Positions 31,534 through 32,538 of a DNA stretch of 32,930 nt are shown here, one piece after another. Each line of letters begins with the position of its first letter. The stretch's first letter is position 1. The position numbers were made by a program, and so were the translations under genes. The notes beneath the pieces were generated by a model. That model was not told the DNA's origin. It saw only the letters and a list, made by a program, of their open reading frames with translations, and ran no database searches. Source of the DNA: Acidimicrobiia bacterium (GTDB lineage Bacteria; Actinomycetota; Acidimicrobiia; IMCC26256; JAMXLJ01); contig JAMXLJ010000020.1 in NCBI GenBank assembly GCA_024281095.1, positions 1 to 32,930 of the forward strand, read 5' to 3'.

Positions 31534-31608
31534 GGGGGCGTAGCTCAGTTGGTAGAGCGCTTGCATGGCATGCAAGAGGTTTCGAGGGTTCGAGTCCCTT
31601 CGCCTCCA
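31534..31608 (+). tRNA. tRNA-Ala (anticodon GGC)
   Basis: A complete cloverleaf can be drawn. Acceptor GGGGGCG (31534-31540) pairs with CGCCTCC (31601-31607), including the G3-U70 wobble that marks alanine tRNAs. The D arm is GCTC-AGTTGGTA-GAGC, the anticodon arm CTTGC-ATGGCAT-GCAAG with GGC at 31567-31569, and the T arm GAGGG-TTCGAGT-CCCTT. The discriminator is A, and CCA is not encoded (ACCG follows). The variable loop AGGTTTC has seven bases, two more than the usual five. Immediately downstream an endonuclease-like reading frame continues without a stop from within the tRNA. Confidence 0.95.
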
Positions 31609-31628
31609 CCGATTTCTTCCAGCAACTC

Positions 31629-32111
31629 CTGTCGAGTTGGCGCCTCACCGGATTCACGCTGGCAGGACTCGTGGCAGGCGAGGGCGCCTTCGTCGTCACC
31701 ACGAATCCGCCTCCGTATCGCGACGGGTCGCTGCGGAAGCGGTTCGTGTTCCAAGTCGCGATGGCGACCCGCGACAGGCCTCTGCTTGTCGCGTTGCAAT
31801 GCTTTCTCGGCGTCGGGTCCATCAGCGACCGGCCACCGAGACAGACGCACTGGGAACCAATCAGCAGGCTGACGGTCAGTTCGCGTCGCGCGCACCGCGT
31901 CGCCACCATCCCGCTCGCAACCCAATTCCTTCTGCCCTGCGCCAAGCGAGACCAGTTCGAGCGATGGCACTCGGAGTTCAACGCATACGAAGCTGCCCGG
32001 CCGACGCGCTGGGGGCTCGGCCCGTCGCCGTGCTCCGTGCCCGGATGCGGCCGCCCGGTCCGAGGCCGCGGGCTCTGTCGGTCGCATTATTACCGTGCGA
32101 CCGGCTACTGA
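31629..32111 (+). CDS. LAGLIDADG homing-endonuclease-like protein 1, start codon unclear
   Basis: About 160 residues from the CTG at 31629. A LAGLIDADG motif, LAGLVAGEG (11-19), has the acidic Glu in place, followed by the usual beta-rich half-domain (RFVFQVAMATRDRPLLVALQCFLGVGSI) and a KRDQFERWHSEF helix. The tail PCSVPGCGRPVRGRGLCRSHYYR is a Cx4Cx9Cx2H zinc knuckle. With one motif it should work as a dimer, perhaps with its neighbour. No ATG, GTG or TTG lies in frame between the tRNA end and the motif (GTG 31671 is inside it). The frame is open back through the tRNA to ATGs at 31506 and 31473. So it is started by CTG, started upstream, or a remnant. Base composition looks less GC-biased than its neighbours. 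Confidence 0.72.
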   Translation: MSSWRLTGFTLAGLVAGEGAFVVTTNPPPYRDGSLRKRFVFQVAMATRDRPLLVALQCFLGVGSISDRPPRQTHWEPISRLTVSSRRAHRVATIPLATQFLLPCAKRDQFERWHSEFNAYEAARPTRWGLGPSPCSVPGCGRPVRGRGLCRSHYYRATGY

Positions 32112-32538
32112 CGCGGCCGCCTGGCTGACGGGATTCGTCGTCGCGGAAGGGTGCTTCACCGGGGCGTCGAACGGCAGCGACTTCACCTTCGCCGTCGGCC
32201 TCGGCGCGACCGATGGTGACACGTGCGAGCTGTTGCACGAGTTCTTCGGTGTCGGCGCCGTGAGGCGGTACGGCCGGCGCAAGGCTCATTACGACGACGA
32301 AGTCACGTTCAGCGTGCGCGCCGTTCCGGAACTTCTCTCAGTCATCGTGCCGTTCATGGACGAGCACCTGCCTGCGTCGTACAAGCGGACGCAGTACGAG
32401 GCGTGGCGCTCCCGGCTGTTCGACTACTGGGAGCACCGGGCGAAGCGGGTACGGCCGTGCAGGGTCGAAGGCTGTGACACCCCGCGACGCGCGCACGGGT
32501 TGTGCCGGCATCACCTCTATGAGCAGAGGCGCTACTAG
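32095..32538 (+). CDS. LAGLIDADG homing-endonuclease-like protein 2
   Basis: A 147-residue paralogue of the preceding protein. The motif LTGFVVAEG (11-19) with catalytic-type Glu is followed by CF and the strand FTFAVGLGAT. LLHEFFGVGAVRRYGRRK aligns with LLVALQCFLGVGSI of protein 1, and YKRTQYEAWRSRLFDYWE with its KRDQFERW helix. The tail PCRVEGCDTPRRAHGLCRHHLY keeps the same Cx4Cx9Cx2H spacing (Cys122, Cys127, Cys137, His140). The start is GTG 32095, overlapping the end of protein 1 by 17 bases, so the two are probably made together and could form a heterodimer. DNA cleavage is inferred from the family only. Confidence 0.8.
   Translation: MRPATDAAAWLTGFVVAEGCFTGASNGSDFTFAVGLGATDGDTCELLHEFFGVGAVRRYGRRKAHYDDEVTFSVRAVPELLSVIVPFMDEHLPASYKRTQYEAWRSRLFDYWEHRAKRVRPCRVEGCDTPRRAHGLCRHHLYEQRRY

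What the first reader, a model, noticed from the sequence alone, without database searches (positions are those of the whole stretch)
31534..32538. tRNA-Ala abutted by a tandem pair of zinc-tailed single-motif LAGLIDADG proteins
Two overlapping paralogues, each with one LAGLIDADG motif and the same C-terminal Cx4Cx9Cx2H knuckle, follow a tRNA-Ala(GGC) gene directly. Single-motif LAGLIDADG proteins act as dimers. Two coupled, diverged copies look like a heterodimeric nuclease made from one message, parked at a tRNA gene that could be its recognition site. A free-standing homing cassette using a tRNA as landing site would be unusual; no intron or intein is visible around them.
Basis: partly seen in the sequence, partly recalled or inferred. 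Interest (0 to 1): 0.75.

Follow-up and report, generated by a model that had tools for sequence, protein, structure and literature searches.

The report
Nuclease gene reading through a tRNA
A pair of DNA-cutting-enzyme genes in uncultured Acidimicrobiia is wrapped around the only gene found for one alanine tRNA, and the first nuclease gene appears to start before the tRNA and read straight through it, so one stretch of DNA would encode both an essential RNA and part of a protein.

Summary
In detail: tRNA-Ala(GGC) at 31534-31610 is followed by two overlapping, diverged LAGLIDADG_1 proteins with the same C-terminal Cx4Cx9Cx2H knuckle. ORF1 has no start codon after the tRNA. It starts at ATG 31473, upstream of the tRNA, and runs in frame through the whole tRNA. 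Fifteen genomes of class Acidimicrobiia carry the cassette, always at tRNA-Ala(GGC); in the 8 genomes checked this was the only copy found. In all 9 copies with intact ORF1 the frame from the upstream start through the tRNA is kept, although spacer, tRNA and linker lengths differ and compensate modulo 3 (permutation 0.003). Codons 2-11, before the tRNA, evolve as protein (pN/pS 0.46 against 1.2-1.4 in other frames). Eight of the 9 starts sit behind a promoter box shared with nuclease and repair genes (6-7 nt before the start), so the mRNA is probably leaderless and damage-inducible. The tRNA's own promoter lies inside the 5' codons. Best reading: a two-subunit LAGLIDADG nuclease whose mRNA contains the tRNA; promoter choice decides tRNA or protein. 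Homing into cassette-free tRNA-Ala alleles is likely but untested. I found no published precedent.

The parts
31445..31466 (+). P1: TGTC-N12-CAGAAT, leaderless-type promoter of the nuclease operon; start codon 6 nt after the hexamer
   Evidence: TGTC/GGTC/CGTC 16 nt before YANNNT in 8 of 9 intact copies; the strict motif recurs before nuclease and repair genes, reversed control 0. The window's own -10 (CAGAAT) deviates from TANNNT and was not hit by the strict pattern.
31473..32111 (+). ORF1, 212 codons, ATG start upstream of the tRNA, reads through the tRNA into the first LAGLIDADG protein
31473..31533 (+). 5' coding part of ORF1 (MCSTCERFEAR...), CxxC motif
   Evidence: CxxC in 16 of 17 copies and relics, with TGT/TGC exchange; pN/pS 0.46 in frame, 1.21-1.39 out of frame
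31494..31522 (+). P2: TTCGAA-N17-TACGGT with extended -10 (tgg), putative tRNA promoter inside the ORF1 codons
   Evidence: read from sequence; a TGGTANNNT-type element at the same place in many cassette-free tRNA-Ala(GGC) loci
31534..31610 (+). tRNA-Ala(GGC), nested in sense and in frame in ORF1
   Evidence: only copy found in the genome
31659..31844 (+). LAGLIDADG_1 domain match of ORF1 (motif LAGLVAGEG)
   Evidence: Pfam PF00961; model and I-OnuI-type matches
32031..32087 (+). zinc-knuckle-like Cx4Cx9Cx2H of ORF1
   Evidence: invariant in alignment A3; Zf_WRKY19 below cut-off
32095..32111 (+). 17-nt overlap: ORF2 GTG inside the last codons of ORF1 (CGT G)
   Evidence: CGT-G kept in 8 of 9 intact copies; L058 has a separate ATG start
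32095..32538 (+). ORF2, second LAGLIDADG_1 protein with the same knuckle (32458-32514)

Best explanation
A two-gene LAGLIDADG nuclease operon is built around the cell's tRNA-Ala(GGC) gene. Well supported by comparison: translation of ORF1 starts 60-66 nt upstream of the tRNA and its frame passes through the tRNA into the first LAGLIDADG domain, so about 25 residues are encoded by the tRNA gene; ORF2 starts inside the end of ORF1. Inferred: promoter P1, of the kind in front of this clade's repair and nuclease genes, gives a leaderless mRNA that ribosomes enter at its first codon and translate through the tRNA before it folds. Promoter P2, inside the first ORF1 codons, gives the tRNA. Inferred further: the two proteins form a heterodimeric endonuclease that cuts cassette-free tRNA-Ala(GGC) alleles, and repair copies the cassette with a working tRNA. 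Losing the locus would lose this tRNA, which would select against clean deletion.
For: tRNA-Ala(GGC) directly upstream of the LAGLIDADG region in 15 of 15 cassette genomes; one copy only in 8 of 8 genomes searched with up to 3 mismatches. No in-frame start after the tRNA in the window copy; only ATG 31473 and 31506. Spacer + tRNA + linker divisible by 3 in 9 of 9 intact copies over three length classes, permutation 631 of 200,000 (the G012 start was corrected by hand). 5' codons: pN/pS 0.46, other frames 1.21-1.39, column shuffle 3 of 2000, LAGLIDADG part 0.50. P1 spacing kept in 8 of 9; 20 distinct sites of the strict motif in three genomes, reversed control 0, in front of PD-DEXK, HNH/DUF222, endonuclease VII, RadA-like and DEAD helicase genes. 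Motif acid (E or D) kept in both proteins of all intact copies read; profiles match I-OnuI/I-SmaMI family structures, fold agrees.
Against: No transcript, ribosome or protein data. Long frames through a tRNA arise by chance in this GC-rich DNA: 4 of 22 cassette-free tRNA-Ala(GGC) loci have 150 or more open codons beyond the tRNA from an upstream start. In 8 of 9 intact copies an in-frame start codon also lies inside the tRNA or linker. The window's P1 has a weak -10 and L041 lacks the TGTC box. The tRNA-encoded part is predicted disordered (residues 15-60 below pLDDT 50). The cassette gene trees are unresolved, so homing is not shown. Six of 15 copies are decayed.
Confidence: 0.68

Rival explanations
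1. The ORF through the tRNA is incidental. The LAGLIDADG protein 1 is translated from a start inside the tRNA (ATG after the anticodon, TTG in the D-loop) or from a non-standard start after it, and the upstream CxxC segment is a separate leader peptide.
For: In-frame start codons lie inside the tRNA or linker in 8 of 9 intact copies; long open frames through the tRNA occur by chance in 4 of 22 control loci.
Against: The window copy has no such start; frame and length compensation; in-frame purifying selection on the upstream codons at the level of the LAGLIDADG part. A separate leader would not need to stay in frame with ORF1.
Confidence: 0.17
2. The proteins no longer home. They are a domesticated DNA- or RNA-binding pair, kept to regulate or protect the tRNA-Ala locus under DNA damage, as WhiA was derived from a LAGLIDADG fold (recalled).
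For: Fixed at one orthologous locus across the class (lepA about 10 kb away in several genomes); repair-type promoter; no phage or plasmid copies.
Against: Motif acids and the K-x2-Q core kept in both proteins; patchy presence (9 of 395 genomes of the class sampled), decay and relics, as expected of a homing life cycle rather than a needed host function.
Confidence: 0.2
3. A degenerate group I intron or intein cassette whose ribozyme was lost.
For: The weak LAGLIDADG_1 relatives lie in or beside 23S rRNA genes where scanned, one with a group I intron.
Against: No group I match at E up to 1 in the window region or up to 0.1 in six cassettes; the tRNA is uninterrupted; those relatives lack the knuckle in the stretches read.
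Confidence: 0.05
4. ORF1 and ORF2 are joined by +1 frameshifting into one monomeric meganuclease.
For: The ORF2 frame is open far upstream of its GTG (221-codon open frame) and known relatives are two-domain monomers.
Against: CGT-G giving the ORF2 start is kept in 8 of 8 overlapping copies; L058 has a separate ATG 4 nt after the ORF1 stop.
Confidence: 0.1

Closest known systems
I-OnuI / I-SmaMI / I-LtrI monomeric LAGLIDADG meganucleases (PDB 3qqy, 4lox, 3r7p)
   Same: Best profile matches of both proteins; fold of ORF1; motif acids kept
   Different: Those are one chain with two pseudo-symmetric halves; here two diverged halves come from two overlapping cistrons, each with a CCCH knuckle, with no intron
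Group I intron LAGLIDADG ORFs in 23S rRNA of the same class (L062, L066, L067, L071, L074)
   Same: Single-motif LAGLIDADG_1; several with a TGTC-N12-TANNNT promoter and nearby start
   Different: In or beside 23S rRNA genes, GFVDGEGCF motif, no knuckle in the stretches read, no tRNA
Free-standing homing endonucleases of phages and of fungal mitochondria
   Same: Stand-alone nuclease genes beside a conserved target without a splicing element (recalled; search listing)
   Different: None I know of has an ORF that contains a tRNA gene
Actinobacterial RecA-NDp/PafBC promoters (PMC6789036, PMC8223512, PMC2897130, passages read)
   Same: Repair-regulon promoter; recalled consensus TTGTCRGTG-N8-TANNNT has the same TGTC-to-TANNNT distance of 16
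   Different: Here the box reads TGTC(A/G)NACCC; PafBC control untested in Acidimicrobiia
Synthetic home-and-rescue gene drive (PMC7968924, start of abstract only)
   Same: A nuclease aimed at an essential gene that travels with a working copy of it
   Different: Engineered; the analogy with this cassette is my inference

Membership tests
LAGLIDADG_1 endonuclease (PF00961) | profile match over the curated cut-off | tested here: met
   25.8 and 29.5 bits, cut-off 23.1
LAGLIDADG_1 endonuclease (PF00961) | acidic residue near the end of each LAGLIDADG motif | tested here: met
   E in 6 of 6 ORF1 and 6 of 6 ORF2 aligned; L058 has D in ORF1 and E in ORF2
LAGLIDADG_1 endonuclease (PF00961) | sequence-specific double-strand cleavage | not testable with these tools
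   needs biochemistry
Free-standing homing endonuclease | no intron or intein host | tested here: met
   Rfam finds only the tRNA in the window region and in six cassettes, apart from one sub-threshold overlap with a tRNA in L058
Free-standing homing endonuclease | present and absent at the same locus in relatives | tested here: met
   G012 with, G023 without, G045 relic, same genus, same flanks
Free-standing homing endonuclease | horizontal spread into empty sites | tested here: inconclusive
   gene trees unresolved
PafBC/RecA-NDp regulon | TGTC...TANNNT box at fixed spacing before repair genes | tested here: inconclusive
   motif and repair genes found; regulator and damage induction not tested
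Leaderless gene | start codon at the transcript 5' end | not testable with these tools
   start 6-7 nt after the -10-like hexamer in the 8 intact copies that have P1; 5' ends not mapped

The most novel reading that the evidence does not exclude
One stretch of bacterial DNA is at once an essential tRNA gene and an in-frame part of a nuclease gene. Which of two nested promoters fires decides whether the RNA becomes tRNA-Ala(GGC) or is translated through. The nuclease, a natural LAGLIDADG heterodimer switched on by DNA damage, attacks cassette-free alleles of that tRNA gene and always brings a working tRNA along: a natural home-and-rescue element.
Probability: 0.35. Interest if true: 0.9.

Novelty: new variant of a known kind. 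Interest (0 to 1): 0.73.

Why it matters
A conserved protein-coding frame running in sense through an intact, apparently single-copy bacterial tRNA gene would be a new gene architecture. It raises a direct question: how does a transcript choose between RNase P processing into tRNA and translation? It would also give a naturally split LAGLIDADG heterodimer, and a selfish gene that protects itself from deletion by enclosing an essential gene.

Tried and rejected
Group I intron hidden in the cassette: none found. Element carrying its own extra tRNA: rejected, since one tRNA-Ala(GGC) per genome was found and cassette tRNAs share lineage features with empty sites (GGGCCCG acceptor in genus g12, longer tRNA in family f9). 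Phage or plasmid origin: no match of P0002 in phages, of P0001 in plasmids, of P0002 or A1 in viral contigs; A2 gave 5 partial viral hits covering 23-64 residues, not followed. Phylum-wide spread: 1 of 396 genomes (only the window's own) at E 1e-20. Vertical against horizontal descent: cassette trees unresolved. NCBIfam: no useful match. Mere openness of the frame was rejected as proof after the control. Naive codon-position counts were weak and were replaced by pN/pS.

Papers: searches listed nothing describing a tRNA nested in a homing endonuclease gene or LAGLIDADG proteins at tRNA genes in Acidimicrobiia. Subscription journals and preprints are not held. PMC6789036, PMC8223512 and PMC2897130 were read as passages only; the others as listings or starts of abstracts.

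Rows dropped: the pN/pS and frame counts use the 9 copies with intact ORF1; the 6 decayed copies were left out of those two tests but stand in the CxxC tally. G051 ORF2 is cut by a contig end and its two pieces were not joined. LepA was not found in G399 at E 1e-100, and G051 was left out of the LepA tree because my script's pattern missed it. 10 of the regulon proteins were given to Pfam.

Full report
What is there. The window (Acidimicrobiia, Actinomycetota; relatives are MAGs) ends with a divergent gene that I read as leuS, a tRNA-Ala(GGC) at 31534-31610 (Rfam 62.1 bits) and two overlapping ORFs. Both encode LAGLIDADG_1 proteins above the Pfam cut-off, 29% identical to each other, with the same Cx4Cx9Cx2H tail.

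What was missed. ORF1 is listed from ATG 31473 to 32111, so it contains the tRNA. In the window no ATG, GTG or TTG lies in frame between the tRNA start and the LAGLIDADG motif. The only in-frame starts are 31473 and 31506, both upstream of the tRNA.

How widespread. A search of 198 related genomes gave 19 with any match; 8 of these, including the window's own, are the pair or its decayed form beside tRNA-Ala(GGC). A class search found matches in 24 of 395 genomes, 9 of them tRNA-linked cassettes. A scan of genome contigs gave 11 loci, 6 of them new. Together 15 distinct genomes carry the cassette and 15 of 15 have tRNA-Ala(GGC) directly upstream of the LAGLIDADG region. In the 8 checked, it is the only tRNA-Ala(GGC) found with up to 3 mismatches. 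A phylum-wide sample found only the window's own copy (1 of 396). ORF1 is intact in 9 copies (G000, G001, G046, G008, G012, G051, L041, L046, L058) and decayed in 6 (G011, G041, L042, L043, L047, L051).

The frame runs through the tRNA. In all 9 intact copies the frame of LAGLIDADG protein 1 is open back to a start codon (ATG or GTG) 60-63 nt before the tRNA that begins (M/V)CS(T/V/A)C. Lengths differ: spacer 60, 61 or 63, tRNA to A73 73, 74 or 75, linker 23-50 nt. They fall in three classes modulo 3, (0,1,2), (0,2,1) and (1,0,2), and always sum to zero. Shuffling the three lengths among copies gave this in 631 of 200,000 trials. The window copy is the most telling: its spacer is one base longer and its tRNA two bases longer than the common form, so the net frame is kept while the tRNA is read in a different phase.

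The part before the tRNA evolves as protein. Over codons 2-11 of the 9 intact copies pN/pS is 0.46 in frame and 1.21-1.39 in the other frames; shuffled columns reach 0.46 in 3 of 2000. The LAGLIDADG part gives 0.50. CxxC is kept in 16 of 17 copies and relics with TGT/TGC exchanges; the exception, L042, is decayed. A necessary caution: in 22 cassette-free tRNA-Ala(GGC) loci, 4 have 150 or more open codons beyond the tRNA from some upstream start. Openness alone therefore proves nothing; the frame match, the selection and the promoter carry the argument.

The promoter. In 8 of 9 intact copies a TGTC (GGTC in G008, CGTC in G012) lies 16 nt before a YANNNT hexamer that ends 6-7 nt before the start codon; L041 lacks the box. 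The strict motif TGTCRNAC-N8-TANNNT-N5..8-RTG occurs at 20 distinct sites (21 rows) in G000, G001 and G046; the reversed control gives 0. Two of these sites are the cassettes of G001 and G046. The others precede nuclease and repair genes: of 10 proteins given to Pfam, 9 matched, among them PD-(D/E)XK, endonuclease VII, DUF222/HNH, HD, a RadA-like ATPase, DEAD helicase and AbiEi-like. The window's own copy has -10 CAGAAT, as L046 has, and was missed by the strict pattern. The layout resembles the mycobacterial RecA-NDp/PafBC promoter (consensus recalled; its role in DNA damage and its presence in other Actinobacteria seen in passages of PMC6789036 and PMC8223512). A second element, TTCGAA-N17-TACGGT, lies inside the first codons; a TGGTANNNT-like element stands at the same place in many cassette-free loci, so it is most likely the tRNA's own promoter.

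With and without. Of 22 cassette-free tRNA-Ala(GGC) loci read, 19 show no trace of the cassette, L092 and L097 keep the promoter and CxxC start but no LAGLIDADG, and L099 keeps part of the 5' codons. Within one genus G012 has the cassette, G045 the relic and G023 nothing; G012, G023 and G045 share the downstream flank. lepA lies about 10 kb from the tRNA in several cassette and empty genomes, so the locus is orthologous. Descent by homing or by inheritance with loss cannot be told apart: the cassette trees are unresolved.

The proteins. Profiles match I-OnuI/I-SmaMI-type meganucleases (ORF2 best E 5e-13, ORF1 best E 3e-23). The ORF1 model has a LAGLIDADG fold with a disordered stretch 15-60, the tRNA-encoded part included; Foldseek returns I-OnuI. 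The ORF2 model has the same order of elements. Motif acids and a K-x2-Q core are kept, so activity is plausible; cleavage is untested. The CGT-G that gives the ORF2 start is kept in 8 of 9 intact copies; L058 has a separate ATG. Where their surroundings were scanned, the weaker relatives in the class lie in or beside 23S rRNA genes, one with a group I intron.

Mechanism and limits. Best supported is a leaderless, probably damage-inducible two-subunit nuclease operon whose first gene is translated through a tRNA gene. That the tRNA gene is the target, that the subunits form a heterodimer, and that ribosomes keep the tRNA from folding are inferences. I found no published precedent, within the limits of an open-access library.

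Noticed in passing
L066 (G042:C12), 1-3321: A 23S rRNA gene with one group I intron match over the gathering score and two below it, hosting a LAGLIDADG ORF with its own TGTC-N12-TANNNT promoter.
   Followed up: partly
L105, L107, L108, L110-L123, L125: A candidate Acidimicrobiia regulon, TGTC(A/G)NACCC-N6-TANNNT with a start codon 6-7 nt downstream, before nuclease, helicase, RadA-like, HD and AbiEi-like genes.
   Followed up: partly
window 31534-31610: The tRNA has a 7-nt variable region and is two bases longer than the common form in the relatives.
   Followed up: partly
L048 (CAMDCC010000123.1): Record titled Bifidobacterium breve; its genome G051 groups with the window's order, so the title is probably wrong.
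   Followed up: no
L110, L122: AbiEi-type proteins stand alone behind the repair-type promoter in G046.
   Followed up: no
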